Made by a program: the position numbers and the translations under genes. Of a stretch of DNA of 23,410 nucleotides, positions 2,396 to 19,358 are shown piece by piece. Origin of the DNA: a virus. The notes beneath the pieces are model-generated. The model did no database searches. It was not told where the DNA came from and was given only the letters and a program-made list of their open reading frames with translations. Position 1 is the first letter of the stretch; every line of letters starts with the position of its first letter. The stretch spans positions 1 through 23,410 of IMG/VR virus record IMGVR_UViG_3300034198_009991. One strand, written 5' to 3'.

Positions 2396-3181
2396 TCACT
2401 CTCCTCTCATGTTTAACCAATCTTGTCCAGGATAATCCTTTGGAGATTGTCCTTCATATTCAACAATCAATTTATCCATATCTTTTCTTTCTGCATAAAC
2501 AGTATAGTTACAATAAATTTTTGTTAACTTTTCAGATCCAATGATAACTTCTTTTGATGTAATTTCTTTAACATATAAACTTGGATCTGGATATTTCCAC
2601 GCTGTCAACTGAACTGTGATTGAATCTTCATGAACCAGATCTTTCCAATAGTCTGGAAGTTTGATGATGTGCTCACCATCAAGTTTACCACGATAATAAA
2701 CCCCAATCTCAGGGCCTTCCAAAGATACATAACGTAATCGATACCCTTCTTTAGATGGATGGGGAATGTCAAATGGTTTTGCTGGTTGCGTTAATCCTAA
2801 ATTAACTTGCGTTGCAAGATTTCCGACTCCTGCAAGTGTTACGACACCATTCATCGCAATGTTGCCATTGGTAATGATGTCACCATTCGCAAGAATCTTT
2901 CCATTCACAATGCTATTATCTGCATTTACTCGAAGTGTTGGAATATTTCCATTGCTGTGAGCCAAGGTCATCAACTGCGTTGATGTTCCATTACAATAGA
3001 ATCCTACATAATCTCCAGTGCTGTGAAATAATACTGCAGCAAGATCTGATAATTTAAAAGAAGAATCACTTGGCAAATCTGTATACCAAAAATCTTCTTT
3101 TGAAACTTCGTCGTAATTATAATCTCCACTAGTACTATTCGGACCTGTAAAGGTTCCGTAGTCCTTATATGTAAATGTCAT
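2396..3181 (-). CDS. Virion structural protein with C-terminal LEGPE domain, 261 aa
   Basis: The N-terminal half includes a repetitive beta-helix-like run (ADNSIVNGKILANGDIITNG). The C-terminal half (about residues 137-244) begins KPFDIPHPSKEGYRLRYVSLEGPEIGVYYRG and continues LPDYWKDLVHEDSITVQLT. The same C-terminal domain occurs in the next gene upstream, so the two are paralogues. In T4-like cyanophages this domain belongs to predicted virion proteins, probably tail fibre or baseplate appendages. The start overlaps the upstream stop by 4 bases (ATGA). The exact place in the virion is not shown by sequence. Confidence 0.72.
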   Translation of the reverse strand: MTFTYKDYGTFTGPNSTSGDYNYDEVSKEDFWYTDLPSDSSFKLSDLAAVLFHSTGDYVGFYCNGTSTQLMTLAHSNGNIPTLRVNADNSIVNGKILANGDIITNGNIAMNGVVTLAGVGNLATQVNLGLTQPAKPFDIPHPSKEGYRLRYVSLEGPEIGVYYRGKLDGEHIIKLPDYWKDLVHEDSITVQLTAWKYPDPSLYVKEITSKEVIIGSEKLTKIYCNYTVYAERKDMDKLIVEYEGQSPKDYPGQDWLNMRGE

Positions 3182-3846
3182 GCATCTATCTCCGTCACCA
3201 ATCTTTCAACATCGATTCTTTCACCAAAGACATGATAGAAACAATCAATTGGCATACCACCATTTGCTTGTAGATGAATCTCTTGATTATCATATCTTTT
3301 AATCGTTACATTTTGATGAGAACCAACAGGAGTTAAACAGACAGTAATCGTTCTTGGGTCAACTAATCTTGCCCAATAGTCTGGTAATTCAATTTTGGTT
3401 GTATTTCTAACTCTTCCCCTTACATATACTGCATTCTCTGGACCTTCAAGACATGCATGAACCAATTTCTTATTTTCTTTTGTTGGATGATCAATAATGA
3501 AGTTTTTGGTTCTTGCCATTATAACTTCTGCGTAAATGATCTTTGATTTGATCAGTTCCACAGTCAAAAGTTTTTCAACTTTCAAAAAACTTTTAATTCT
3601 TGCATAGGTTTTTACAAACAACGAATAAAACGGAATAGGTTTCATATCACTATTCTTTGTTTCACCCAGCATCAATGTACCCAACTCTGTTGGTTGGGGC
3701 GTATTATAAACTGATGGATCTCCAACAATTTGTGGACCTTCTACATAGGCAGATCCACGAACTTCGGTTGGACCTCTTCCTAGAATTTCTGGGTTTCCCT
3801 CACCAACAAAAAGTCTTTTACCTACAGCAACGTCACTAAATTGCAT
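3178..3846 (-). CDS. Virion structural protein with C-terminal LEGPE domain, 222 aa
   Basis: The N-terminal half is unlike its neighbour and includes a beta-rich lead (VGKRLFVGEGNPEILGRGPT) and an oddly Lys/Ile-rich stretch (about 80-115). The C-terminal domain (about 115-213) reads KNFIIDHPTKENKKLVHACL then EGPENAVYVRG, LPDYWARLVDPRTITVCLTPVG and CFYHVFGERIDVERLV, paralogous to the downstream 261-aa protein. Likely a tail or baseplate appendage subunit. It lies 2 bases after the beta-helix gene and overlaps the next gene by 4 bases. Confidence 0.72.
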   Translation of the reverse strand: MQFSDVAVGKRLFVGEGNPEILGRGPTEVRGSAYVEGPQIVGDPSVYNTPQPTELGTLMLGETKNSDMKPIPFYSLFVKTYARIKSFLKVEKLLTVELIKSKIIYAEVIMARTKNFIIDHPTKENKKLVHACLEGPENAVYVRGRVRNTTKIELPDYWARLVDPRTITVCLTPVGSHQNVTIKRYDNQEIHLQANGGMPIDCFYHVFGERIDVERLVTEIDA

Positions 3847-3848
3847 AA

Positions 3849-4445
3849 TTAACCTCCAACTTTATTATTCTCAGTTTCTGCAGTTCCACCATATTTAGAC
3901 TTCTTAAGTTTATCTGCTCCCGTTGCACAAGCAGCTAAACCACCATAAATGTCTAGAATTGCATTGCCAATAACCTTTGTAGTTCCTGATGAAAAGAACT
4001 TTGCAACTGAAGAAGCATTGATCTCTACATTTTTTGATATAATCTCAACTTTTTCATTGGACTTCAGTGTAATCACACCATTCTTATTGTCTGATCCACT
4101 TGCAAGAAACTCTATATTCTCTGCTTGAAACTTAATTCTTCCGCGAGTTGCACTGAAAATAATATCACCATTTACACATTCAACATAAAATGCTGGTTTT
4201 CCATTTTCAGGATCGCTTGTTACATCATCGCCACATTTGATTTGATATGTTCCTGGGCATCGATTAATTGTTCCACCTTTTCTACCTTCGCCTCCAGTAG
4301 CATCCATAGACATGTAATGTCTGATATCAGAGCCACTTCTAACCATAAAGGCAGAAATTTGATTGTCATTGTGAATATGTCCAAACTTTATTTCACCATC
4401 TTTGGTGCCGTATCTTAAAGAGTCGGGATTTTTAACCTCTGACAT
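3849..4445 (-). CDS. Beta-helix spike-like baseplate protein, 198 aa
   Basis: The N-terminal region (1-70) has HIHNDNQISAFMVRSGSDIR, and residues about 80-165 form repeating short strands (DIIFSATRGRIKFQAENIEF, GVITLKSNEKVEIISKNVEI). This pattern is typical of the triple-stranded beta-helix at the end of gp5 or VgrG-type spikes. The gene starts at the last base of gp5 and directly follows it, so it may supply the spike shaft that T4 carries in its gp5 C-terminus. The role is inferred from repeat pattern and position. Confidence 0.62.
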   Translation of the reverse strand: MSEVKNPDSLRYGTKDGEIKFGHIHNDNQISAFMVRSGSDIRHYMSMDATGGEGRKGGTINRCPGTYQIKCGDDVTSDPENGKPAFYVECVNGDIIFSATRGRIKFQAENIEFLASGSDNKNGVITLKSNEKVEIISKNVEINASSVAKFFSSGTTKVIGNAILDIYGGLAACATGADKLKKSKYGGTAETENNKVGG

Positions 4446-6703
4446 TATACTTTACCTACACAATCGATGACTTGAAGAATTGATTCTCCTGGAGGAACAG
4501 TTGCTTCTGCTTCAGGAACATCTCCAACTCTATTTACACAGAACACTGGAAGTATCTTTGCATTATATCCTGTTTCTGATTCAATGTAAATTTCTGGCGC
4601 TACGGTATATCCAATTCCAGATGAAATGATCTTGACATTTTCTAAACTTCCAAACGCACCATATACTGGTTCAAGTACAGCTCCTTTATCTGGAGAAATA
4701 ATAATCTTATCAGTAGTGCTATAAGCAACTCCTGGATTTGTAACTATAGTATTGCAAAGATACAGAACTACAGGATATTGTGCTGTTGTAGAACTTGGTT
4801 GTATTGCAGTTTCAGATGATCCAGGATTTCCAACTTTTGGATCATCTGGTGGACAACCTGGGGCAGTGATTGATTGATCTTCAGTAGCGACATATTGTGG
4901 TTGTCCTGCAAGTTTCACAGTATCACCTGCTCTGATACTCATAATTTCTCCCCCATTATATGGAGTATCCCAGGTTCCGTTTGCTCTATAAATCGTTGAT
5001 TGACATCTTGTAGCCCATACTCTACCACTACCACCAAGATCTCCATTTGGGGACGATAGATATCCAGTTCCAGATTGTTCTATAACTGCATTGATAACAC
5101 CAGTTGTTGATTCGCCATTTGGACCGGTCACTGTTCCAATCAGTGCTGTAGCAACTGCACCTGTTCCTTGTCCACAAGCATCTTCAAATTGAATAAATGG
5201 TGGTTCAGTATAACCAAATCCAGATGCAATGATATCAACACCAAGAATATCTCCTGTAGCACTAATGATTGCATTAGCTTCTGCACCTTCACCTCCACCG
5301 CCATAAAACACAACATTTGGAGGACCACATTGAATTGCGTTCGTAGAACAACTATCTTGGAAAATATCAGAAAAATCTAAATTAAAATCAAAATTATTTG
5401 GATCGATTACCTCTTGTGCATTTGATGCAAAAGTTTCTACAGTATTGAAAAGATTATCAAAGTTTAATGTTGTATTGGCTCCCGCACCATCCCAAATACT
5501 CCATTCTTTCAGATTTCCGCAGGATGGTTTTTCATCACAAGTAAGAAGACCGAGCAGTTGGCCAACAAAATTTAAAATTTGACCCGCAATATCAAAAGCA
5601 CCACCAACAAGTGCTTCAAGTGGTTTTAAAATTTCATTGATTGTCGAAGAAATCAATCCAACAAGTTTTCCAAGCACTCCGCCGACAAAATTATTAACAA
5701 AACATTCAGTAACATTAATAACTTCGTTTACCATTGCCAAGAGTGCTTCTCCAATCATCTTCAAAAGATTGGAAATAATTTTATTAAACAGACAAGAGAG
5801 TGTGTCGTTAACTTGCTCTACTGCTTCTTTTGCTTTTGGTCTTTCGTTAGGATACAAATTATAATAAGTATCCTTCATAGTATTATTAATTTTTTCTGTT
5901 ACATATTTTCTAGTTCCATCAATAATGTCTTTGAAGAATTTACTTATGTCCTTTGCAGCATTATTAATCTTCATCTGAATATATTCAGATGAAGACATTT
6001 GCTGCCCATTATAATTAATTGGTTTTAAAACAGTATTTTTCCATTCTTTTTCTTGCTTTTTAGCGTTTTCAATATCTTTGATTAATTGTTGCAGTTTCTT
6101 TTGAACTGCAGATAACTCTGCAGGATCACACTTTGATTGAATTGGATTTGTTTGCTGCCCGTCTTCTTTTTGTTCAATATCGCAAGTATTATCCAAACAT
6201 GTTCTGGATCCCGAATTACCTTCTTGTGGCGAACCATAAGGAATTACTGGAATCGAATAATATGGAACTTCTTCGCCATTGTGTCCACTAAAGGGAACAA
6301 ATCCTTCTAGTGGAATGTTTCTTGATAGTGTTGTCTGATCATTATTTCCTAAGCAACCAAAAATAATCGGTTCGGTTGCATCAATTCCATCCTTATAAAA
6401 TCCAAATACATAAGTTCCATGATTTAAATTAGCACTCTGGTATCCACTTTTATGTCCAGATCCAGCAGTGACTGGATATAAAAGTTCTGCCATCTCCAGT
6501 TGATCATCTGGAGTATCTTTATTTGCACTATCTCTACCAAATATTCTTACCTTACATCTTGTCCCATAACCAGGAATTTGTGTTGCATCTTGAAACTTTT
6601 CTCTTTTCTCATTATCTTTCCAGGTTTTATCATCGACAACCTGCCCCAACCACCATTGGAGATCTGTCAGTCCTGAATGAGAATTGAAAAAGTTATTAGT
6701 CAT
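4445..6703 (-). CDS. 5: gp5 baseplate hub subunit (no lysozyme domain), 752 aa
   Basis: Residues about 12-120 form the gp5-type OB fold: WWLGQVVDD, GYGTRCKVRIFGRD, LEMAELLYPVTAGSGHKSGY, LNHGTYVFGFYKDG, EPIIFGCLGN. This N-terminal domain of the hub spike docks on gp27. T4 gp5 (575 aa) has its lysozyme next; here residues about 190-400 are a long, mostly helical and partly hydrophobic insert with no lysozyme motif. The C-terminal part holds four G-x-G-Y-type beta units at about 495, 545, 658 and 696 (GFGYTEPP, GTGYLSSP, GVAYSTTD, GIGYTVAP). I take the ATG at 6703, which overlaps the upstream stop as TGATG; a TTG codon precedes it. A 28-bp palindrome lies in the coding sequence at 5968-5995. Confidence 0.85.
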   Translation of the reverse strand: MTNNFFNSHSGLTDLQWWLGQVVDDKTWKDNEKREKFQDATQIPGYGTRCKVRIFGRDSANKDTPDDQLEMAELLYPVTAGSGHKSGYQSANLNHGTYVFGFYKDGIDATEPIIFGCLGNNDQTTLSRNIPLEGFVPFSGHNGEEVPYYSIPVIPYGSPQEGNSGSRTCLDNTCDIEQKEDGQQTNPIQSKCDPAELSAVQKKLQQLIKDIENAKKQEKEWKNTVLKPINYNGQQMSSSEYIQMKINNAAKDISKFFKDIIDGTRKYVTEKINNTMKDTYYNLYPNERPKAKEAVEQVNDTLSCLFNKIISNLLKMIGEALLAMVNEVINVTECFVNNFVGGVLGKLVGLISSTINEILKPLEALVGGAFDIAGQILNFVGQLLGLLTCDEKPSCGNLKEWSIWDGAGANTTLNFDNLFNTVETFASNAQEVIDPNNFDFNLDFSDIFQDSCSTNAIQCGPPNVVFYGGGGEGAEANAIISATGDILGVDIIASGFGYTEPPFIQFEDACGQGTGAVATALIGTVTGPNGESTTGVINAVIEQSGTGYLSSPNGDLGGSGRVWATRCQSTIYRANGTWDTPYNGGEIMSIRAGDTVKLAGQPQYVATEDQSITAPGCPPDDPKVGNPGSSETAIQPSSTTAQYPVVLYLCNTIVTNPGVAYSTTDKIIISPDKGAVLEPVYGAFGSLENVKIISSGIGYTVAPEIYIESETGYNAKILPVFCVNRVGDVPEAEATVPPGESILQVIDCVGKV
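5968..5995. repeat. 28-bp perfect palindrome inside gp5
   Basis: The 14-base half TCTTCATCTGAATA is followed directly by its exact reverse complement. In RNA it would form a 12-bp stem with a UAUA loop. On the gp5 strand it encodes SSSEYIQMK (around residues 238-246). No U-tract follows, so it is not a standard terminator. Confidence 0.9.
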
Positions 6704-6918
6704 CAATCGTCGTATACTCTACATTCCAGAGCATCTGGATGCATATCACAATACAGCTCTAATGCTGTTGGATCATGATCATCATCAGGATGATTCATTT
6801 GATACTGTTCTAATGCATCAAGTTCATCTTCAATGTGACGACGGCGTTGAGAACTTGTATTGGGATTGTCTAATTCATCCCGATCATCATTGATGTGTTG
6901 TTGAAGTGATTTGTCCAT
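6703..6918 (-). CDS. Small acidic conserved cyanophage protein, 71 aa
   Basis: Reads MDKSLQQHINDDRDELDNPN and is strongly helical and acidic, with Asp/His-rich stretches (NHPDDDHDPTALELYCDMHP) and the end ECRVYDD. An upstream in-frame start at 6975 would overlap the gp27-like gene by 55 bases. The ATG at 6918 fits the operon spacing, 2 bases after that gene's stop. It lies between the gp27-like hub and gp5 genes, so a role as a hub-assembly factor is possible but unproven. Confidence 0.72.
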   Translation of the reverse strand: MDKSLQQHINDDRDELDNPNTSSQRRRHIEDELDALEQYQMNHPDDDHDPTALELYCDMHPDALECRVYDD

Positions 6919-6920
6919 AG

Positions 6921-8243
6921 TTACAAAGGTTTCCTTCCGATAGATTCTCTCACTAAATTCAGAGTTGTATAACACCCATTTTTTGTTATACGATGACCAA
7001 CATCCGATACCATATATATGCCACTTTTCTTGTAACTATAAGTGGTATTGGTTTTTGCAGATACCTCTGGAAAATCGCAGTGAATGATATCGCCAGCACG
7101 AATACTAAAATCTCCTGCAATTGTCAATGAAAGTTTGATAGCAAAAAGACTATTATATCTTGTTGCTGATTGAATCAAAATTTCATCAACATTAAAATTA
7201 AGTTCTTTTGATTTATTTAATTGCTGATTAAGATTCGTTCCTCGGGGCAATGTTCCAGTATCTAAGATTTTAACATATCTTTTTGTTGTTTTATTTTGAT
7301 CGTCACCATACTTAATTTTTTCAAGTCCACCAGTGTTATTTTCATTGAATTGGTTGCTTGAATTTATAGCATTTTTATCATTGTATTTGTTTGTATATGG
7401 ATCAAATGTTCTTGTTTCTGCTTGGCCAATCGCACCAGTCAAACGTAATCGCTTTAAATTGAAGGTGGCATCAAACGAATACGTTAAAATCTTTCCATTA
7501 TATCCTGGTGGTATTTTTCCAATCAAGTTGTTAAATATAAGTTTTCTCTTTGGTTGTTGTTGAAATAACTTATCAATGGATTTAAATTGAAATCCTTCTG
7601 CAGTTTCATAGAAGAAGTATCCTGCAAGATTTCCCTTTGCTCCTTGAATATCAGGAACACATCTTTTCGCTAACCAAGTGCAAAGATAAAATGGTTTTTG
7701 ACTTTTTCCAGTGAAACTAAAATCATTTAATGCCGAGTCAACACTAATTGATTTCTTTGTCTTAAGTGTGCTTTGCAGTATACTCTTTACACTATCAGTA
7801 ATTTTTCCATCATATCTTTTTGTAACAACACTTTCCAGATTATCATTATCATGATATTCTGTCGATGTCATGTCAATTGTATAAACAATCTTATTAGTGC
7901 TTTCATCAATGTTTCGTGTTTCCAAAACTCTCAATTGATTATTATTTTCTACATCAAAATATAATTGAGTCCCATAACCATCAGTGAACTTTATGTTTAC
8001 AAATTCGCCAGTGTTTAGATTTACATCACCACTTTCAAGAACTGTAGATCCTTCTGCGTTTCTTCTGTATCCAGTATCAGTTAATGTTGCTGTGGCACGA
8101 ATTGTATGATCTAAAACACTTTCATGATAAGTGAATTCAATAATACCATTGGATATATCCGTGGGTTTTTTGGTATAGTGAGATACTATCTCAAATAGAT
8201 TAATTTGACCTTCGCCGCCTTGGGCTTGAATATTTGCTGCCAT
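6921..8243 (-). CDS. gp27-like baseplate hub protein, 440 aa
   Basis: The N-terminus is beta-rich (GIIEFTYHESVLDHTIRATA). The centre has the hub signature FYLCTWLAKRCVPDIQG...YFFYETAEGFQFKSIDKLF (about 185-227), which resembles the T4 gp27 segment where a one-residue-per-strand domain presents a 'full/field' site. The C-terminal domain ends GIYMVSDVGHRITKNGCYTT then LNLVRESIGR, typical of gp27/VgrG-N hub domains. Its length is close to T4 gp27 (391 aa). Position next to gp5, its known binding partner in the central hub, supports the call. The similarity is remote, so the name is a structural assignment rather than strict homology by sequence. Confidence 0.72.
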   Translation of the reverse strand: MAANIQAQGGEGQINLFEIVSHYTKKPTDISNGIIEFTYHESVLDHTIRATATLTDTGYRRNAEGSTVLESGDVNLNTGEFVNIKFTDGYGTQLYFDVENNNQLRVLETRNIDESTNKIVYTIDMTSTEYHDNDNLESVVTKRYDGKITDSVKSILQSTLKTKKSISVDSALNDFSFTGKSQKPFYLCTWLAKRCVPDIQGAKGNLAGYFFYETAEGFQFKSIDKLFQQQPKRKLIFNNLIGKIPPGYNGKILTYSFDATFNLKRLRLTGAIGQAETRTFDPYTNKYNDKNAINSSNQFNENNTGGLEKIKYGDDQNKTTKRYVKILDTGTLPRGTNLNQQLNKSKELNFNVDEILIQSATRYNSLFAIKLSLTIAGDFSIRAGDIIHCDFPEVSAKTNTTYSYKKSGIYMVSDVGHRITKNGCYTTLNLVRESIGRKPL

Positions 8244-8244
8244 A

Positions 8245-10335
8245 TTATGCTCTACCCAAACTTGCCATATTATTATTTACACTCATAGGAATTGGAAATG
8301 CTATTGTTGAACTTCCTCCTGAAGGAACTGGAACTGGTTTTTCAAAAATAATTGGTTGAATTGCAACTGTTGTACCACCAGAATCATAAGAAGGATATCT
8401 GTAAATGGAAGAAACTTTTTGTGGTTTTGGAGTTTTAAGTTTTGCTGGATTCTCCGCTTCTTTTGGAGAATACATGAATGGAGGAATAAATGGTATGCCA
8501 CTACCAACTTTCTTTTCGCCAACTTTTTTAGCACCTACTTTTTTTACACCTGCTTTTTTGATAAACTTTTTCCATCTTGGTTGAGACCAACCTCTTGGTG
8601 GTGAAGATCCTGGTCCCGACTGCCATGAATAATGATAGAAATTTCCTCTTGCATCAACCATTGGGTCTTCGGTGGAAACTCGGTTTCCCAACATGGTTTG
8701 TCCTTTGAAGTCTGTTCTTCCCTGAAGTCGATACAATGCTGCTGCAATTTTTGCTTGTCCTTCTGGAGACTGTAAATGTTTTTCAATGTCTGGAGAAAAT
8801 CCTGCAGTTCCTTTTGTAATAGCTTCATATTGACCTGGTGATAGCACAACTTTTTTAACAGATCCTCTTCCTTCAGCAACTCGATTCAAAATTGATGCAG
8901 CTACAGCATACATATCATCGCCAGGACCTGCTTCTCCACTTATACCATATGCAAGATATTTGTAATCTTCATTACTAAGTCCTGTTAACGTAGCACCACT
9001 CATTGGTGTCAATGGATCAGAACCAGGACTTGAAACTGCTGGGCCTCCGCCGCCACGACGACCTCCTCCCGTGCTTGGTGCCCCTTTACTTGGAGCTCCA
9101 GAATCTCCTGATGGTTGTTTATCCTCATCAATTTTGATAAGTTCATCAGTTACATTTTTTAATGCATCATTAACTCGACTTTGAATTAATGTTGCAAGAA
9201 GATTGCCTACAATTTTAGTATTTTGTTCAGTTGATAGAACCATTCCACCATCAGCAAATCCTAAAATTGAACTGCTTATAAGATTTAATCCTCGTCCCTG
9301 TTGAATATTTGCTTGAGATAAGGAACCAACTCCACTTGCAACAGATGTTGCAATTCTCTTACTATCTACTTTTTGTCCCAGTGCAATCTTAACACCAGCA
9401 GCCATCAGAGCGCCAATCCAACCACCTTTATCTAAAGAATCGGAAACCCCAGTTAAAGCTTTATAAGGATTTGGTTGTCTCTTGCCAGTAGTTGGTTTTG
9501 GATCTGGAAATAATTTTTGAATCTTTAATTTGCCACCAACATCTTTACCAGGATTTGTTTTTTCTGGTTGAACTTTCTTTGGTATTTGAAGTTTTCGTTC
9601 TTGTTTTAAAGTTCTTCCAATTGCTCCACCAACAATCTTACCACCTCTTGTTTCTCGTCCTCCATTTGCATAACCACGAACCATTCCTCCAACAGATTTT
9701 TTCTCAGGTGGTTTTTGATTTCCTCTTCCAAGTTCAGATAAACCGAATGTTAAAACAGCATTTAAAAATCGATTGAAGTTTTCTCCAAATTGATCAAATG
9801 TTTTTTGTGCTTTATCTCCCCCAAGATCTTTGGACAAGGAACGCATTTGATCATAAGCTTTATATCCTGCATCAACAAAACCAACAACACCTTCAAAAAT
9901 ACCACCTACAATTTTTTCCGCGACATTTAAGACAGGAACTGTTTGTTTTAAAATACCTAAAAGTTTTGGAGTATCTCCTTGAAATTTAGTTAAAAGATAC
10001 CCTAAAAATGTATATGTTGCAAATCTTTGAACCGCATCAAGTATTCCAGTTTTTGGAAATAAAGACTTTAGTTTTTCTGCTCCCTTAATTCCTTTTGGCG
10101 TTTCTAAACTTTCCTCTTTTTTTTCTCTTTTCTTTTTTGTCGTCGTAAGTTTTCCTTTTATTGCTTTTCTTTTTTTCTCTTTGTTTTCATTTTTTAAAAA
10201 CTTATCAACATTAATAAGTTTTTCTTTGACCTGAAAATTAAGAACATCATCCACTCTTTTATCATAAGACGCTGCCATTCTTTCGGCAGTCGTTAATTTT
10301 GATGGTGGTAAAAGTTTTTGTGGATTGATAGCCAT
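8245..10335 (-). CDS. Tape-measure-like tail protein with SleB-type cell-wall hydrolase domain, 696 aa
   Basis: Order of parts: a Lys-rich coiled start (1-90); hydrophobic helices with FATYTFLGYLLTKF (105-118) followed by membrane-type helices (125-160); a Gly/Lys linker region (200-300); a second hydrophobic part (300-360); a Gly/Ser-rich linker (405-450); then residues about 452-585 with YLAYGISGEAGPGDD, YAVAASILNRVAEG and VKKVVLSPGQYEAI. The last block is the SleB/Hydrolase_2 peptidoglycan hydrolase pattern, with the likely catalytic Glu in SGEAG (E468). A VKKVGAKKVGEKKVG repeat follows (594-612), then a Pro-rich tail. It lies between a tape-measure-like gene and the gp27-like hub and probably acts as the tail's cell-wall-opening enzyme. 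Confidence 0.78.
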   Translation of the reverse strand: MAINPQKLLPPSKLTTAERMAASYDKRVDDVLNFQVKEKLINVDKFLKNENKEKKRKAIKGKLTTTKKKREKKEESLETPKGIKGAEKLKSLFPKTGILDAVQRFATYTFLGYLLTKFQGDTPKLLGILKQTVPVLNVAEKIVGGIFEGVVGFVDAGYKAYDQMRSLSKDLGGDKAQKTFDQFGENFNRFLNAVLTFGLSELGRGNQKPPEKKSVGGMVRGYANGGRETRGGKIVGGAIGRTLKQERKLQIPKKVQPEKTNPGKDVGGKLKIQKLFPDPKPTTGKRQPNPYKALTGVSDSLDKGGWIGALMAAGVKIALGQKVDSKRIATSVASGVGSLSQANIQQGRGLNLISSSILGFADGGMVLSTEQNTKIVGNLLATLIQSRVNDALKNVTDELIKIDEDKQPSGDSGAPSKGAPSTGGGRRGGGGPAVSSPGSDPLTPMSGATLTGLSNEDYKYLAYGISGEAGPGDDMYAVAASILNRVAEGRGSVKKVVLSPGQYEAITKGTAGFSPDIEKHLQSPEGQAKIAAALYRLQGRTDFKGQTMLGNRVSTEDPMVDARGNFYHYSWQSGPGSSPPRGWSQPRWKKFIKKAGVKKVGAKKVGEKKVGSGIPFIPPFMYSPKEAENPAKLKTPKPQKVSSIYRYPSYDSGGTTVAIQPIIFEKPVPVPSGGSSTIAFPIPMSVNNNMASLGRA
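8500..8556 (-). repeat. Short degenerate repeat encoding a K-K-V-G linker
   Basis: This stretch encodes tandem units of the form [AVE]KKVG (residues 594-612 of the SleB-domain protein). It is a basic, flexible linker between the hydrolase domain and the Pro-rich C-terminus. Confidence 0.6.
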
Positions 10336-10338
10336 TTA

Positions 10339-12237
10339 TCAAACTATCCCGTAAATGCTTGCATTCATTGCTCGATCTGAACTGCCACTTGGAGATACTG
10401 CAGAAAATGCAGGGACTTGAGTTCCAGAACCTGCAGCCATTCCAGCAGCAGCTCCAGTTTGTGTAATTGGTGGAAGATTAATAATGCGAGATCTTCCCTT
10501 GCTTGGAGGTGTGGGCATTGGACCCTTGTAATAACCTTTTTTATATGCTTCTTCAAGAGAACCTCCTGCAGGTTGAGGATCAAACATATCTCCAATTACA
10601 GGCGCATTTAATAATCCCATTGCCCTTCCCCCAAGTTTCATCAAACCTTTTCCAAATGCTTGTGCCATTGTTGGGGTTTCTCTCATTAACAATGGCATTA
10701 ATGATCTCGCTTTAGCGCCAGTATATTTTCCAGATAAAATTCCCTCAGCAATTCTCAATCCTCTATTTGCTTGTCGTTCTGATACAACTGTAGCACCTCT
10801 AAAAGTTCTTGCTGCTTGAGGAACCAACATATTAAGTCTTGGGCCCTGACCAGGAAGTATACCTTTCCAGTTTCCAGCACCTCTATAAGTATCAGCAACC
10901 CATCCTTTAATACTTCCATATACTCCTTTTCCAAGCATACCAGTTTGTCCTTTAAACCCACTTTGACGAATTAATTCTGGAATACCTTCTCCAGTTCCAT
11001 GCATTATTCTCATCAAATCAGCACCTCGCAATCCCATTGGTTTTCTGCCAATAAGACCTCCACCTTGAGCAAATTGAATATTATCTGCAAATCTTGGTTG
11101 ATTGGCATTTGATCCACCAAACATTGAGTTTAATGCAAGCAATTTTTTTGCACCAATCCCTTTTACTGCGGCACGATTCATTACGATTTCACCTGGTTGT
11201 AGCGCAGTCAATTGAGTATCCGGACCTGCTCCAGAAATTTTGATTCCAGTGTTCGGATTGATAAAGCCTCCAGATGAAACACCTTGTAATAATCCATATG
11301 GAGTTGTTGGTCCCAAATCTCCAACGCTAGGAGATTTATCAATCATCGTGTCTGTTCCACGAACTCCTAATCCCTTGCCGGTCTGTGCTTTTGCTTTGCT
11401 TTCTGTTTGGACTGCAGCTGCCTTTCTTTGTCCCGTTACTTCATTTGCAAGAGCCGCTAATCCAGCAAACGCTCCTGCTGGAGTAAAAATTAATTTTTGA
11501 GCTGCAAATCTTGCACTAAACCATGCAATTTGCCCAAGAGTTTTGAATATAAACCCTTTGAAAGGCATAAAGTATAAACCAAGTAAAGCAGGCCACCAAT
11601 CTTTTAAAAACCTACCAAGAACCTGAACTTTCTGAGCATTCTTAGGATCGCCCAACCAATTCATAAGTTGAGTAAATGCTCTACCAAGTAAAGTAAAAGT
11701 TATAAATTTCCAAATACGATCAAAAATGCCTTTAAATGGTTCAATAACTTTATCAATTATCTTTTTGCCAACTTTTTTTACTCCTTCAAGAGCGTCTTCC
11801 TTTTTACTTCTTTTCTCTTTTTCTTCATCTTTTCTTTTATCTTCTTCTGTCTTTTTGTCAAACTTCAGTCTATTCTTTAAAGTCTCAAAAATTGAGTTTA
11901 ATACTTTTAAAATTCCAAGTGATGGTTTTTTAACTTCTTGTTGAGGAACAATTTTTGCAAGAGCGCCACCGCGATCTTTTGTTCCAGGAAGAATATTAAT
12001 TTTTATTGGTTTGACTTTTGCAGTAGCGATTGCCTTTTTTTGCAATACTTTTTCTACAAAAGTTTTGAACTGAACTTTATTTGTTCTTTTCTTAAATGCT
12101 TCTTTTCTTTCAGAAGGAGTTAATTGTTCTCCCGCAATCGTTCCTTCTGCCGATAATTCTTGCAAATATTGATCGTATCTATCCTTACCTACTAAACTAA
12201 GGGCTGATATTCTTTTGTTGTTAGGGTTATCAGCCAT
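10339..12237 (-). CDS. Tape-measure-like tail protein with ADP-ribosyltransferase-like segment, 632 aa
   Basis: Parts in order: a Lys/Glu-rich N-terminus (1-150); hydrophobic helices beginning KFITFTLLGRAFTQL (177-191) and WWPALLGLYFMPFKGFIFKT (214-233); the tape-measure-style motif DTQLTALQPGEIVMNRAAV (340-358); a region with MHGTGEGIPELIRQSGF then GMLGKGVYGS and ADTY (412-451); and a Gly/Ser-rich end. The HGT/GKGVY/Y spacing matches PARP-type ADP-ribosyltransferases. It directly follows the gp26/gp51-like pair, where tape measures sit in tailed phages. It may be the functional gp29 analogue (T4 gp29 is 590 aa), but I see no clear gp29 sequence match. The start overlaps the preceding gene by 8 bases. 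Confidence 0.7.
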   Translation of the reverse strand: MADNPNNKRISALSLVGKDRYDQYLQELSAEGTIAGEQLTPSERKEAFKKRTNKVQFKTFVEKVLQKKAIATAKVKPIKINILPGTKDRGGALAKIVPQQEVKKPSLGILKVLNSIFETLKNRLKFDKKTEEDKRKDEEKEKRSKKEDALEGVKKVGKKIIDKVIEPFKGIFDRIWKFITFTLLGRAFTQLMNWLGDPKNAQKVQVLGRFLKDWWPALLGLYFMPFKGFIFKTLGQIAWFSARFAAQKLIFTPAGAFAGLAALANEVTGQRKAAAVQTESKAKAQTGKGLGVRGTDTMIDKSPSVGDLGPTTPYGLLQGVSSGGFINPNTGIKISGAGPDTQLTALQPGEIVMNRAAVKGIGAKKLLALNSMFGGSNANQPRFADNIQFAQGGGLIGRKPMGLRGADLMRIMHGTGEGIPELIRQSGFKGQTGMLGKGVYGSIKGWVADTYRGAGNWKGILPGQGPRLNMLVPQAARTFRGATVVSERQANRGLRIAEGILSGKYTGAKARSLMPLLMRETPTMAQAFGKGLMKLGGRAMGLLNAPVIGDMFDPQPAGGSLEEAYKKGYYKGPMPTPPSKGRSRIINLPPITQTGAAAGMAAGSGTQVPAFSAVSPSGSSDRAMNASIYGIV

Positions 12238-12397
12238 TAGTCTGTCGCTGTTTGAGTTCCTCTTCCTCTAAATGATTCTTAAGAAGAGCAACGTAAATGT
12301 CTCTTTCCCAAGGAATCATATTTTCAATCTCTGTTAATGAATATTTATGATACTGCATTAACGAAAAATTAAGTTGATAATAACTTTCTAGGTCCAT
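12230..12397 (-). CDS. gp51-like small baseplate hub assembly protein, 55 aa
   Basis: This ORF is short and reads MDLESYYQLNFSLMQYHKYS, then IENMIPWERDIYVALLKNHL and an acidic helix ending RQTNG. I recognise the MIPWERDIYVALL block from the small cyanophage proteins annotated as gp51, the baseplate-hub assembly catalyst. The ATG at 12397 has AGGA 9 bases upstream, overlapping the end of gp26; an ATG at 12406 is in frame but lacks room for a binding site. It lies between gp26 and a tape-measure-like gene, as tail-assembly chaperone partners do in other phages. It is much shorter than T4 gp51, so the symbol is withheld. Confidence 0.7.
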   Translation of the reverse strand: MDLESYYQLNFSLMQYHKYSLTEIENMIPWERDIYVALLKNHLEEEELKQRQTNG

Positions 12398-12408
12398 ATG
12401 GACCATTC

Positions 12409-13128
12409 CTATGCGAAAAAAGATGATAACCCTTCAAGAACAACTTCACTTTCTACTTCGGTTTTTGGATTTTTAACTTTGACCGTATGACTAAGTTTAG
12501 GCATGGTCTCGAAGAAGTTTTCAATTTGCTTAAATTGTGATGTATTCATCTGTTCTAAGAATTCAGTTAACTCTTTCTTAGTCACATCAGCAGTTGACCA
12601 CACTTCATCTTCAGTATAAATTTTATCAATGCAGGATGCAATCAAATCAAATGATTGGTCCATTGCATTATCGCCCGACAAATCAAAATTGGTCTTAATG
12701 AATTGATCTAATGATGGATACTTCATTTCCATCATAATTGAATCATCAACTTTGATTTTATTGGTATGCTTTGGATTTTTTTGAACCTGAATTTCATCAA
12801 CATTAATTTTTACAGAAACAGAAGTTTCTTCATCATCAGGACAAATAATATTCAGTTCAATTTCTTCACCAACTGATTTGCCACGAATATTCAGGAACAA
12901 ATATTCAATATCAAATGTAGGAAGAGTTTCTACTTTAATATTTTTTGTCTCAATACAGTTTTTGATAACTGCTTTGATGGCTGTTGTGATTTGTTTTGTA
13001 TCTTCGCTTTCGAGTGCCAAAACTAGAAGTTTTTCTTCTCTTACAAGAAAAGGTCTGTATTGAATTGTTTTTCCAGTTGATGGCAATTCCAACTCATATG
13101 TTGGTGTTGAGATCTTTGGTAAAGGCAT
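12409..13128 (-). CDS. 26: gp26 baseplate hub assembly protein, 239 aa
   Basis: The start MPLPKISTPTYELELPSTGK leads into YRPFLVREEKLLVLALESED, the diagnostic opening of the T4 gp26/T4_baseplate family. It continues with FDIEYLFLNIRGKSVGEEIE, a beta-rich centre (ELNIICPDDEETSVSVKI) and a helical C-terminus (ELTEFLEQMNTSQFKQIENF). T4 gp26 (208 aa) acts in assembly of the baseplate central hub and is thought to behave as a chaperone. AGGA lies 5 bases before the ATG, and a CTAAATA box lies 26 bases upstream. It heads the hub/tape-measure segment of the operon. Confidence 0.85.
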   Translation of the reverse strand: MPLPKISTPTYELELPSTGKTIQYRPFLVREEKLLVLALESEDTKQITTAIKAVIKNCIETKNIKVETLPTFDIEYLFLNIRGKSVGEEIELNIICPDDEETSVSVKINVDEIQVQKNPKHTNKIKVDDSIMMEMKYPSLDQFIKTNFDLSGDNAMDQSFDLIASCIDKIYTEDEVWSTADVTKKELTEFLEQMNTSQFKQIENFFETMPKLSHTVKVKNPKTEVESEVVLEGLSSFFA

Positions 13129-13163: not shown

Positions 13164-14006
13164 TTATGCGCCAATAACCGCTCCAGTTATACCCAGTTCA
13201 GTTTTGGTTCCTTGTGGTAATTGGACACCAAATTGATCCAATGCAGGATTACCGACTGGAGAACCACTTTTTGTTCTATTTGCATTTAAGAAATCATTAT
13301 AAACAGCACCTTCAGGAATTGTTCCTACCACTTCTTGATTTTCTGGTAAAGACTGAGGATTTATTTGTTTGGATTCTATCCAATAACGATTGTAGGAAAA
13401 GGATACAGTAAATTTTAAAAGTTCTGAAGAATCATAAGAAACTGGCATTGAATTAATGCTAGTTGGAAATGCTCTCACAAAATTATAAGTCAATAACCTT
13501 CCAGTTTTGGCATAATCTCTTTCAAATTTTGTGATCGATAAAGATCCTCCATTTTGACCACCAGTGCAATAATCATCAGGAAAGTTTACTCGATAGTGAT
13601 AATTATTTGCTCCAGGTTGATCTCCATATTGCTCATTTACTGCATATGCAATCCAAGATTCAAATAATCTAATTACATAGTAATCTTCGTTACCGACATA
13701 AAAAGTAAAATCTGCACGATCATCATACTGTCTACGATAAGCCTGTCTTTCAGTAACTCCAGTATGATCATCATTAATTTCATTTGTCATCAAAGATGAT
13801 CCAGGTAAAGATGCTTCAACGCAAGCCAATGACAATTTATCAAATCTTTGTTTAGAATCTTGAGAATTAATTTGCAAATGTTGATCTAAAAAACCACTTA
13901 TTGGTGGTTGAAAATCACAAATATAATGGGATGTTAAAGCAGGTTTTAACAACTTGCTTTTAATTTCACTCATTGAAATGCCAACTTTTGGATCTACGGT
14001 TGCCAT
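13164..14006 (-). CDS. gp54-like tail tube initiator, 280 aa
   Basis: Contains RFDKLSLACVEASLPGSSLM, ERQAYRRQYDDRADFTFYVG, VIRLFESWIAYAVNEQ, NYHYRVNFPDDYC and RAFPTSINSMPVSYDSSELL then KFTVSFSYNRYWIE. This is the tail-tube (gp19-like) fold pattern: small beta barrels with the 'expected result of a helix plus SWI.Y' segment. Its length is greater than the tube protein (T4 gp19 is 163 aa) and near T4 gp54 (320 aa), which starts the tube on the baseplate. It is divergent from gp4 and near gp48, the tube cap, which agrees with this role. A tail-tube paralogue of other function is the alternative. Confidence 0.65.
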   Translation of the reverse strand: MATVDPKVGISMSEIKSKLLKPALTSHYICDFQPPISGFLDQHLQINSQDSKQRFDKLSLACVEASLPGSSLMTNEINDDHTGVTERQAYRRQYDDRADFTFYVGNEDYYVIRLFESWIAYAVNEQYGDQPGANNYHYRVNFPDDYCTGGQNGGSLSITKFERDYAKTGRLLTYNFVRAFPTSINSMPVSYDSSELLKFTVSFSYNRYWIESKQINPQSLPENQEVVGTIPEGAVYNDFLNANRTKSGSPVGNPALDQFGVQLPQGTKTELGITGAVIGA

Positions 14007-17844: not shown

Positions 17845-18249
17845 CTAAGTACTTTCATATTTATTTTTCTTTTTTTCATAATATTTTTTACTTATTTGTT
17901 TGATTTTTTCTTTATTTTCAATTCTATATTTTTGTATTTTTTCTTTATTATTTTGTCGGTACAACCGATCAATTTCTTTTTTCTTTTCTCTATTTTCTTC
18001 TCTCCATTTTCTTTGCTGTTCTAATCTTTTATCTCTACTTTTATCTCTACTTTCTTTCCATTTTTGTATTTTTTCTTCTGGAGAATATTTTGTATTTGCT
18101 ATAGAAATTGCGTTTTTTGCCTCATCTGTATGATTCCAGCCTCTCTTTCCCCATCCAGTATTAGCATATATTGGAGTATCATCTACATCCATGTATTCTG
18201 GACCATCAATGCAAAATAATTCATTTAAAGGTTTACAACTGAAGTTCAT
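17845..18249 (-). CDS. NUMOD-like, homing-associated basic coiled-coil protein, 134 aa
   Basis: Residues about 33-55 read GKRGWNHTDEAKNAISIANT, close to the NUMOD3-type DNA-binding motif of phage homing endonucleases (G-K-x-H-S-x-E-x-x-x-x-I-S). From about 57 onward it is a highly charged coiled coil with a degenerate repeat (EENREKKKE, NNKEKIQKYRIENKEKIKQ). No H-N-H or GIY-YIG catalytic motif is visible, so it may be a truncated homing endonuclease or a DNA-binding remnant. It lies between gp59 and DUF1825, with a perfect late promoter 22 bases upstream of the ATG, as for the LAGLIDADG gene. The base composition is even more AT-rich than its neighbours. Confidence 0.55.
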   Translation of the reverse strand: MNFSCKPLNELFCIDGPEYMDVDDTPIYANTGWGKRGWNHTDEAKNAISIANTKYSPEEKIQKWKESRDKSRDKRLEQQRKWREENREKKKEIDRLYRQNNKEKIQKYRIENKEKIKQISKKYYEKKKNKYEST

Positions 18250-18340: not shown

Positions 18341-18928
18341 CTATAAAATTATTTCCTTGAGGATTTTTTTGTATTTAAAAATGTCTATTTGAATAAATGG
18401 GCTATATTTTTTAATTTTTAAACTGACGGTTTCCCACACTGGGTCTAGCAGTTTTTTATCAAATTTATTCCCGAACATGAATATTCTATCATAAATCACC
18501 AAAGTTTCAATACTGATTTTACCACTCAGAAAACTTTTTAATACTGGAGGATGTCCTTTTGAGCAGTTAAAGACATCCTCAAATTTATGTTCTGAAAATA
18601 GTTTTTCAGATTCCTCTTTGAAGATGTAACTTAGCGACTGAATCTTTCTCTGCCAGTCTGTATAAGTTCGATCACCTTCCCGTATAATATTTCCAATCCA
18701 CAAATTAGAAGGATCAGAAGCCATAACAAAATTACTAACAAAGAACTCCTGAATTTCTTTATCAGTCTTATTGCGGGATAGTTTCTCAAACCAAAAGCGA
18801 TCTTTCCTTTTGTAGAACGACTGAAGATTCGCTTTGATCTTGCCACAATACTTCTGGTAATCATAATTTGGTTGCGTAAAATGATTTTTCAGAGCAAGAT
18901 AAGTTTTATAGGTGTCAAAGGGCATCAT
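18341..18928 (-). CDS. 59: gp59 loader of replicative helicase, 195 aa
   Basis: Starts MMPFDTYKTYLALKNHF and continues YDYQKYCGKIKANLQSFYKR, KDRFWFEKLSRNKTDKEI, LWIGNIIREGDRTY, WQRKIQSLSYIFKEESEKL, KSFLSGKISIETLVIYDRIF and LDPVWETVSLKIKKYSPF. These match T4 gp59 (217 aa) block by block, including Y-x-x-R-x-D-R-F/Y-x-F-x-K-L and V-W-x-x-x-S. The protein loads helicase gp41 onto gp32-coated fork DNA. A longer reading to 19120 overlaps the endonuclease gene in another frame and is not gp59-like there. Only 22 bases separate it from the homing endonuclease upstream. Confidence 0.9.
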   Translation of the reverse strand: MMPFDTYKTYLALKNHFTQPNYDYQKYCGKIKANLQSFYKRKDRFWFEKLSRNKTDKEIQEFFVSNFVMASDPSNLWIGNIIREGDRTYTDWQRKIQSLSYIFKEESEKLFSEHKFEDVFNCSKGHPPVLKSFLSGKISIETLVIYDRIFMFGNKFDKKLLDPVWETVSLKIKKYSPFIQIDIFKYKKILKEIIL

Positions 18929-18950
18929 TTCAAAGCACGGTAAAAATTTT

Positions 18951-19358
18951 TTAAAATGATAAATTATATGTTTTTGTTTTTTTGGGAACAGGTGTATATT
19001 TTTCTGAAGAATAACTTGTCTTACGAGATTGATTTTGACGAACATTTTGAATCTGTTCTTGTCTTCTTTTTGACAAATATGGTTCCATTTTTTCAGCAAT
19101 ATACATTGCTTTTGGACCACATATTGATAATCTATATTGAGTTTTGTATTCTTTACCCTTCACATTTTTTCCAGATGGAATAAATGTTCTATATTTTTCA
19201 TGTTGCAGAATTGATGCTAGTTTTTTAATAACATCTTCATCAGACATGCTAATAGACATATGTGGATAGTAATAAACTTTATTGTTGGTTGTTCTTTTTT
19301 TAAGACCTACCCACCCTTCTCCCTCAAAAATTCCTACTAACCAACTAAAATCGTCCAT
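18951..19358 (-). CDS. LAGLIDADG-type homing endonuclease, 135 aa
   Basis: The start MDDFSWLVGIFEGEGWVGLK holds the LAGLIDADG-type motif (WLVGIFEGEG, residues 6-15), where the acidic residue before the final Gly binds the catalytic metal. Then HMSISMSDEDVIKKLASILQ and YRLSICGPKAMYIAEKMEPY, LSKRRQEQI, the usual beta-alpha order of the fold. It has one motif and about 135 residues, so it should act as a homodimer. It is free-standing between gp33 and gp59, with its own late promoter (19388-19381) and a poor ribosome-binding site, as is common for phage homing genes. Confidence 0.88.
   Translation of the reverse strand: MDDFSWLVGIFEGEGWVGLKKRTTNNKVYYYPHMSISMSDEDVIKKLASILQHEKYRTFIPSGKNVKGKEYKTQYRLSICGPKAMYIAEKMEPYLSKRRQEQIQNVRQNQSRKTSYSSEKYTPVPKKTKTYNLSF

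What the first reader, a model, noticed from the sequence alone, without database searches (positions are those of the whole stretch)
10723..11046. PARP/ART-like H-Y signature inside a tail tape-measure-like protein
Residues 412-451 read MHGTGEGIPELIRQSGF...GMLGKGVY...ADTY. In PARP-type ADP-ribosyltransferases the NAD-binding His lies in (W)HG(S/T), followed by GL/GF, then GKGIY, with a second Tyr 11 residues after the first. Here H413, Y440 and Y451 keep this order and the 11-residue Tyr spacing is identical. A later VVSE (E487) is a candidate for the catalytic Glu but is uncertain. T4 injects the Alt ADP-ribosyltransferase from its head; an enzyme delivered from the tail tube would be a different route to modify host proteins at once.
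Basis: partly seen in the sequence, partly recalled or inferred. Interest (0 to 1): 0.7.

Follow-up and report, generated by a model that had tools for sequence, protein, structure and literature searches.

The report
ADP-ribosyltransferase-like cassette in cyanophage tail protein
A virus of marine cyanobacteria appears to carry, inside one of its tail proteins, a swappable enzyme-like module that resembles proteins which tag host molecules with ADP-ribose, hinting that the tail itself may deliver a host-modifying tool; activity is unproven.

Summary
The H413-Y440-Y451 signature is real. Residues ~397-527 of a 632-aa tail-cluster protein form a mobile module found in 13 virus contigs including the window (10 distinct sequences). 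His, both Tyr and their 11-residue spacing are kept in 10 of 10. The proposed catalytic E487 is not (E,S,E,A,S,P,P,A,A,D). The module is 74-79% identical between carriers with unrelated N-terminal parts, is under purifying selection, and lies in the gp26/gp27 tail-hub gene cluster of T4-like phages, in slots where relatives keep peptidoglycan hydrolases. In one phage the next gene is a protein kinase. ART fold: supported, not proven. One AlphaFold model (pLDDT 62.6) matched only ART-superfamily chains at Z>=2 (22 of 22 entries, Z 2.5-3.7). A second, worse model matched nothing. No Pfam, NCBIfam or PDB profile finds the module directly. Profile comparison links it to PARP-like domains in podovirus internal virion proteins. 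Best reading: an ART-like (H-Y, no conserved Glu) effector cassette in a tail cargo slot, probably ejected at infection. Enzymatic activity and delivery are inferred. New variant of a known kind (virion-borne phage ARTs).

The parts
10339..12237 (-). Carrier tail protein A (632 aa): N-terminal part (res 15-400) matches phrog_35029; the ART-like module and a C-terminal tail follow
   Evidence: lies between the gp26-like and B/gp27-like genes
10657..11049 (-). ART-like mobile module (residues 397-527); a conserved hydrophobic stretch continues to about residue 560
   Evidence: 74-79% identity to modules in eight other distinct carriers, 47-50% to L070
10999..11001 (-). H413 of the HGT motif (NAD-binding His position of ARTs)
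   Evidence: invariant 10 of 10; in strand 7-13 of model 1
10918..10920 (-). Y440 of G-x-G-V-Y (second ART motif)
   Evidence: invariant 10 of 10
10885..10887 (-). Y451, 11 residues after Y440
   Evidence: invariant 10 of 10; same spacing in the P60 and S-CBP42 domains
10777..10779 (-). E487, proposed catalytic Glu: not conserved
   Evidence: column ESEASPPAAD
8245..10335 (-). Protein B (696 aa), locally related to A, with a cell-wall-hydrolase-like domain at res 474-545
   Evidence: PF07486 E 1.6e-4, below cut-off; local match of A to B
12409..13128 (-). gp26-like baseplate hub protein
   Evidence: PF12322 E 7.7e-78; phrog_150
6921..8243 (-). gp27-like tail protein
   Evidence: phrog_350 E 5.9e-70
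4445..6706 (-). gp5-like baseplate hub protein
   Evidence: phrog_1922 E 5.9e-90
13164..14006 (-). tail tube-like protein
   Evidence: PF23849 E 5.3e-10; phrog_45

Best explanation
The module is a reduced ADP-ribosyltransferase-fold domain of the H-Y (PARP/Tpt1-like) kind, without the conserved catalytic Glu. It rides as an exchangeable cassette in the cargo slot of tail-cluster proteins A or B of T4-like cyanophages. Shown: the conserved signature, mobility between unrelated carriers, purifying selection, tail-cluster location, and co-occurrence with peptidoglycan hydrolase domains in the same slots. Inferred: that A/B sit in the tail hub or tube and are ejected with or before the DNA; that the hydrolases open the wall while the ART-like domain enters the host; that it binds NAD+ and transfers ADP-ribose to a host protein or nucleic acid, or consumes NAD+.
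For: H/Y/Y and HGT..GF..GxGVY are invariant in 10 distinct modules. VIA-align of model 1: 22 of 22 entries with Z>=2 are ART superfamily (Tpt1/KptA, TreTu, PARP10/12/14, diphtheria toxin, exotoxin A), Z 2.5-3.7, of 214 chains aligned. hhalign to the P60/S-CBP42 internal-virion domains: prob 88.6, score 42.2 against at most 23.8 in 150 column shuffles. The A4 profile of such podovirus-type domains hits only PARP chains in the PDB at E<=1, 13 of 13, best 0.0018. Module 74-79% identical (50% L070) while N-parts show only short noise-level matches in 6 of 9 comparisons and 39-45% identity in 3; dN/dS 0.15-0.33 in 8 pairs. Contigs with held flanks place it beside gp26-like and/or gp27-like genes. 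Partner genes hold Hydrolase_2, VanY, DPBB, SLT, M23 or Phage_lysozyme. A kinase is next door in L046. In S-CREM2, two large 'endolysins' just before the central-spike genes were found in virions (PMC10665884 Table 3).
Against: No Pfam, NCBIfam or PHROG family convincingly finds the module; a profile search of the PDB with A3 gave 0 hits at E<=10. Model 1 has low confidence and four of its five models were <=43.3 pLDDT. Model 2, with ten sequences, was worse (48.6) and gave no match at Z>=2. Foldseek had no hit at E<=0.001. The third catalytic position is not conserved. The database-level E-value of the link to P60/S-CBP42 is only 0.1-0.4, and three of the five A4 rows were found through the motif, so one search is partly circular. 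Delivery and activity are untested.
Confidence: 0.58

Rival explanations
1. The module keeps the ART fold but is a non-catalytic binder (pseudo-ART) that recognises NAD, ADP-ribose, nucleic acid or a host protein, for example as a decoy or an anchoring piece of the tail tip.
For: Third catalytic position variable (ESEASPPAAD) and no strictly invariant acidic residue; few strands after the second motif in model 1.
Against: His and both Tyr are strictly kept. Some ART lineages have no acidic third residue (H-H-h, passage of PMC13285283); that PARP10-14-type mono-ARTs lack the Glu is recalled.
Confidence: 0.22
2. The module is not an ART but a small structural or assembly domain of tail proteins with a coincidental HGT-GVY signature.
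For: No curated profile hit; low-confidence models, one without any match.
Against: Signature with exact spacing never seen in 5.58 million shuffled residues; all structural matches of model 1 at Z>=2 are ART folds; profile link well above column shuffles. Only 4 of the 29 A-type proteins in A5 carry it, so it is not needed for assembly in general.
Confidence: 0.15
3. It is an unusual peptidoglycan- or envelope-acting domain, as are other fillers of this slot.
For: The same slot holds GH19 (4 of 29), glucosaminidase (3 of 29), tail lysozyme (2 of 29) or amidase (1 of 29) domains in relatives.
Against: Complete partner genes carry recognisable hydrolases in addition to the module, so it is extra rather than a replacement; no hydrolase profile hit; a protein kinase can also occupy the neighbouring protein.
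Confidence: 0.05

Closest known systems
Phage T4 Alt and MuF/portal-fused or polyvalent-protein ARTs (PMC9503650, PMC5512222; abstract listing and passages seen)
   Same: Phage-encoded ART-superfamily domains predicted to be carried in the virion and injected early; often exchanged between phages; enriched in myoviruses
   Different: Those are head/portal-associated by the contexts in the passages seen. Here the carrier genes lie in the tail hub cluster. T4 Alt is of the RSE clade, this signature is H-Y. The catalytic Glu is not conserved here.
PARP-type mono-ARTs and Tpt1/KptA (PDB 2pqf, 8xpx, 9rls, 6fzm, 8tg4, 9ld6)
   Same: HG[ST] His, GxG[VI]Y, second Tyr at +11 (recalled for PARPs); among the best structural matches
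   Different: About 130 aa, no conserved third residue, no detectable profile match to PARP itself, no Tpt1 N-terminal lobe
Rhs-linked ART toxin TreTu of type VI secretion (PDB 7zhl/7zhm)
   Same: Small ART-fold cargo attached to a contractile tail-like injection machine
   Different: Here the carrier is in a phage tail cluster; no immunity gene was looked for; 6-9% identity over the structural alignment
Tape-measure-related effectors such as Sle1 (PMC13277306, abstract and passages seen); tape measure proteins with peptidoglycan hydrolase motif (phage TM4, seen only as a cited title)
   Same: Tail-lumen cargo protein with an exchangeable C-terminal functional domain
   Different: Those are bacterial contractile systems or wall hydrolases; 'ADP-ribos' occurs 0 times in the Sle1 paper
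Internal virion proteins of Synechococcus podoviruses P60 and S-CBP42
   Same: Same H-[AG]-T..GF..GxGVY..Y layout and +11 Tyr, hhalign prob 88.6
   Different: Longer domain with a late ETFLFDPS/EVFLFDPS strand (a candidate Glu strand); podovirus ejection-protein context

Membership tests
ART superfamily, H-Y-[EDQ] clade (PARP-like) | His in HG[ST] on beta-1 | tested here: met
   HGT in 10 of 10 modules; strand 7-13 of model 1
ART superfamily, H-Y-[EDQ] clade (PARP-like) | Tyr in GxG[VI]Y and second Tyr at +11 | tested here: met
   Y440 and Y451 in 10 of 10
ART superfamily, H-Y-[EDQ] clade (PARP-like) | Acidic or amide third residue on beta-5 | tested here: not met
   Position 487 reads ESEASPPAAD and no acidic column is strictly invariant; Q of 'RQAN' is kept in 9 of 10 only; the strand that would bear it cannot be assigned from model 1
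ART superfamily, H-Y-[EDQ] clade (PARP-like) | Split beta-sheet ART fold | tested here: inconclusive
   Model 1: only ART chains at Z>=2, but Z 2.5-3.7 and pLDDT 62.6; model 2: none
ART superfamily, H-Y-[EDQ] clade (PARP-like) | Match to a curated ART profile | tested here: not met
   No Pfam ART family for the window, L007, L036 or L070 modules; no NCBIfam family for window, L036, L070; A3 against PDB: 0 hits at E<=10
ART superfamily, H-Y-[EDQ] clade (PARP-like) | NAD+-dependent ADP-ribose transfer | not testable with these tools
   needs purified protein
ART-PolyVal (polyvalent proteins) | PF18760 profile match | tested here: not met
   No match for the window, L007, L036 and L070 modules or in the records of L033, L042 and L049; weak match only in the podovirus-like L058 record
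Tpt1/KptA RNA 2'-phosphotransferase | N-terminal lobe with its catalytic residues plus the ART lobe (recalled) | tested here: inconclusive
   Only the ART lobe aligns (model 7-97 to residues 91-177); no PTS_2-RNA hit for the module
T4 Alt (RSE clade) ARTs | R-S-E motif set | not tested
   The conserved motif set here is H-Y-Y; no alignment to Alt was made
A/B slot proteins of T4-like cyanophage tail clusters | Gene between gp26 (phrog_150) and gp27-like (phrog_350) | tested here: met
   Both sides by PHROG for the window, L040 and the L042/L054 contig; both sides by synteny judged by eye for L050 (L007 contig), L047, L048; one side only for L043, L044 (L035), L045, L046 and L070
A/B slot proteins of T4-like cyanophage tail clusters | Present in the virion | not testable with these tools
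   Indirect only: S-CREM2 ORF208/209 in a like position, 73 and 71 unique peptides (PMC10665884 Table 3); homology of these ORFs to A/B was not tested

The most novel reading that the evidence does not exclude
T4-like cyanophage tails work as effector injectors: a mobile ART cassette (and in one phage a protein kinase beside it) is loaded into exchangeable slots of tail-lumen proteins together with wall hydrolases. It is fired into the cell with or ahead of the DNA, ADP-ribosylating a host target before any phage gene is expressed, by a tail route distinct from T4's head-packaged Alt and with an ART site that dispenses with the catalytic Glu.
Probability: 0.35. Interest if true: 0.78.

Novelty: new variant of a known kind. 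Interest (0 to 1): 0.55.

Why it matters
Virion-borne ARTs of phages are known from heads. A tail-slot ART cassette would tie contractile phage tails to the effector logic of type VI secretion and other contractile injection systems, and would be a candidate for an enzyme acting on a marine cyanobacterium at the moment of infection. The exchangeable fillers of the slot give a way to find more such effectors by position alone, as the kinase in L046 suggests.

Tried and rejected
E487 as catalytic Glu: rejected on conservation. Direct family assignment by Pfam, PHROGs, NCBIfam and PDB profile: nothing convincing. A second AlphaFold job with ten sequences gave a worse model and no structural match. 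Host-genome homologues: 52 stretches in genome contigs matched a pattern, none encoded a relative. Annotated phage homologues of the module: none at a significant E-value. Relatives of P60's domain in the phage collection at E<=0.01: only P60 and S-CBP42. Relatives of the L046 kinase: two loci, one of them the same contig. The first pattern scan had a spacing error of mine and returned 0; the corrected one gave 18 stretches, of which 12 hold this module, 3 a podovirus-like protein (L058, L059, L067), 1 a standalone ORF (L053), and 2 (L060, L064) look unlike phage proteins and were left out. The same 12 contigs came back with an independent downstream pattern. Papers: seven searches listed no paper whose title or shown abstract describes an ART in a cyanophage tail protein; six papers were opened, as outline/abstract or passages only (PMC9503650, PMC3037559, PMC5512222, PMC10665884, PMC13277306, PMC13285283).

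Rows dropped before counts: identical modules (L034, L045, L049, and overlapping fetches of the same contigs) were collapsed to 10 distinct sequences; the second L013 ORF was left out of A5. A5 holds the 26 distinct ORFs of the 32 loci plus P0001, L048 and L035. One search compared the window with the nine other distinct modules; dN/dS was computed for eight of them (L070 left out because gapped).

Full report
WHAT IS THERE. The window is a fragment (23,410-base virus record) of a T4-like cyanophage: gp32-like and PhoH-like genes match Synechococcus phages, and tail genes match gp26, gp27-like, gp5-like and tail-tube families. The next gene, B (8245-10335), is locally related to A and has a weak cell-wall-hydrolase match (PF07486 E 1.6e-4, below the cut-off). 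Upstream is gp26 (PF12322, E 7.7e-78); downstream of B is the gp27-like gene (phrog_350).

OBSERVATION. The strict pattern appears 0 times in 5.58 million shuffled residues, and in the fetched sequences only in this module family. I treat it as more than chance.

THE MODULE IS MOBILE. Scans of viral contigs found the module in 12 contigs besides the window; two DNA patterns laid on different parts of it returned the same 12. After collapsing identical copies there are 10 distinct sequences. Against the window they are 73-77% identical in the alignment, and L070 is 47%. Local alignment gives 74-79% for eight and 50% for L070. The carriers differ. L007, L035 and L048 share A's N-terminal family at 39-45% identity. 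L033, L036, L042, L043, L047 and L070 have N-terminal parts with only short, noise-level matches to A. L033/L040 and L047 carry an M23 peptidase upstream of the module (L040: PF01551 E 1.1e-24; L047: endopeptidase-type PHROG families). The L042-type carrier is related to a gene of phage S-CAM1 two places downstream of gp26. Eight pairwise dN/dS values lie between 0.15 and 0.33, so the module is under purifying selection while its carriers change.

THE SLOT. Of 29 A-type proteins scanned, Pfam (E<=0.01) found GH19 in 4, glucosaminidase in 3, tail lysozyme in 2 and Amidase_3 in 1; the ART-like module is in 4 of these 29 (window, L007, L035, L048). Where the module is present and a complete partner gene was scanned, the partner holds wall-active domains: Hydrolase_2 (window, weak), Hydrolase_2 plus VanY (L050, the contig of L007), VanY plus DPBB (L048), Phage_lysozyme (L040), SLT (L047), M23 and a weak SLT (L042, L043): 7 of 7 distinct contigs. 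The contigs of L035, L045 and L070 are cut there, and in L046 the partner, cut by the contig end, begins with a protein kinase domain (PF00069 E 3.8e-13, over its cut-off). So the module is added to, not substituted for, wall hydrolysis.

IS IT AN ART? For: the H..Y..Y signature is invariant in 10 of 10. Model 1 (five sequences, pLDDT 62.6, pTM 0.63) gave 28 of 214 aligned chains with Z>=2, shown as 22 entries, all ART superfamily. In the Foldseek PDB list the first row is Tpt1 and 12 of the 50 rows shown are ART folds, though no E-value is <=0.001. In BFVD, rows 2, 4 and 43 are named PARP-like or ADP-ribosyltransferase, again none significant. tblastn with the L070 module pointed to internal virion proteins of podoviruses P60 and S-CBP42 (E 0.1-0.4). 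Profile comparison of the module family with these two gives prob 88.6 and score 42.2; 150 column shuffles reach at most 23.8. The A4 profile (P60, S-CBP42, L053, L058, L067 domains) hits only PARP chains in the PDB (13 of 13 at E<=1, best E 0.0018), and single members have weak, sub-cut-off Pfam matches to PARP, exotoxin-A-catalytic, ART-PolyVal, DUF3990 and Tpt1 families. Three A4 rows were found through the motif, so A3 against A4 is partly circular; A3 against A6 is not, apart from the choice of the best hit in a database.

Against: no family library finds the module itself; PDB profile search 0 hits; four of five models of job 1 were poor; job 2, with more sequences, was worse and matched nothing. 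The proposed catalytic Glu is E in 2 of 10, D in 1, and S, A or P in 7. My own estimate is about 0.75-0.8 for an ART-like fold and about 0.6 for catalysis given the fold.

HOW IT MOST LIKELY WORKS. Protein A sits in the hub or tube (inferred from gene order). Relatives in this position have wall hydrolase domains, and in S-CREM2, with a ~418-nm tail, two large 'endolysins' (ORF208 and 209, about 1,565 and 1,456 codons by their coordinates) just before the central spike genes were found in purified virions with 73 and 71 unique peptides (PMC10665884, passages seen). The authors propose encapsulation and caution that some such proteins might be carried along in purification. I did not test homology of these ORFs to A. 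On contraction A and B would be ejected; hydrolases open the wall; the ART-like domain reaches periplasm or cytoplasm and modifies a target with ADP-ribose from host NAD+. The lack of a conserved acidic third residue points to mono-ADP-ribosylation by an unusual site, to a site more like the H-H-h lineage (lineages as listed in PMC13285283), or to a binding-only domain.

WHAT IS KNOWN. A survey of 21,191 viral proteomes (PMC9503650, abstract and passages seen) reports ARTs packaged in virions, most in myoviruses, with fusions to MuF or portal and contexts near head genes; in its main text 'tape' and 'cyanophage' occur 0 times, 'baseplate' 0 times and 'tail' 3 times. PMC5512222 (passages) describes polyvalent proteins with ARTs. 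PMC13277306 (abstract, passages) describes tape-measure-related effectors with exchangeable functional domains in bacterial contractile systems, with no mention of ADP-ribosylation in the text held. My seven paper searches listed no report of an ART in a cyanophage tail protein; that is not proof of absence.

VERDICT. Observation confirmed; interpretation partly supported. New variant of a known kind: an H-Y ART-like cassette in a phage tail cargo slot. Activity and delivery remain to be shown.

Noticed in passing
L046:6757-7758 (+): Gene directly behind an ART-module carrier encodes a protein kinase domain (PF00069 E 3.8e-13, over cut-off), cut by the contig end: two possible effectors side by side in tail slots.
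   Followed up: partly
L071:4813-9732 and L072:4930-9762: Internal virion proteins of Synechococcus podoviruses P60 and S-CBP42 hold a PARP-like domain (HAT..GxGVYTA..Y and a late ETFLFDPS/EVFLFDPS strand), annotated only as internal virion protein.
   Followed up: partly
L058:7753-14544, L067:1-1650 (-): Podovirus-like large proteins carry an HGT..GxGIY domain with a weak ART-PolyVal match (E 0.005, tested for L058 only).
   Followed up: partly
window 17845-18249 and 18341-19358: Minus-strand ORFs that read like homing-endonuclease or intron-associated genes among replication genes; judged by eye from the ORF list only.
   Followed up: no
window 2396-3181 and 3178-3846: Two neighbouring ORFs share a block like HPxKExxxLxxxxLEGPExxVYxRG, perhaps a duplicated domain; by eye only.
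   Followed up: no
L009, L011, L016, L017, L019, L021, L023 (C-terminal halves of A): Slot fillers that I could not name by eye in A-type proteins; possible further cargo domains.
   Followed up: no
window 12238-12408: 171-base gap between gp26 and A where related phages annotate a very short 'baseplate hub assembly catalyst' gene; 12294-12358 is 91% identical to phage DSL-LC02.
   Followed up: no
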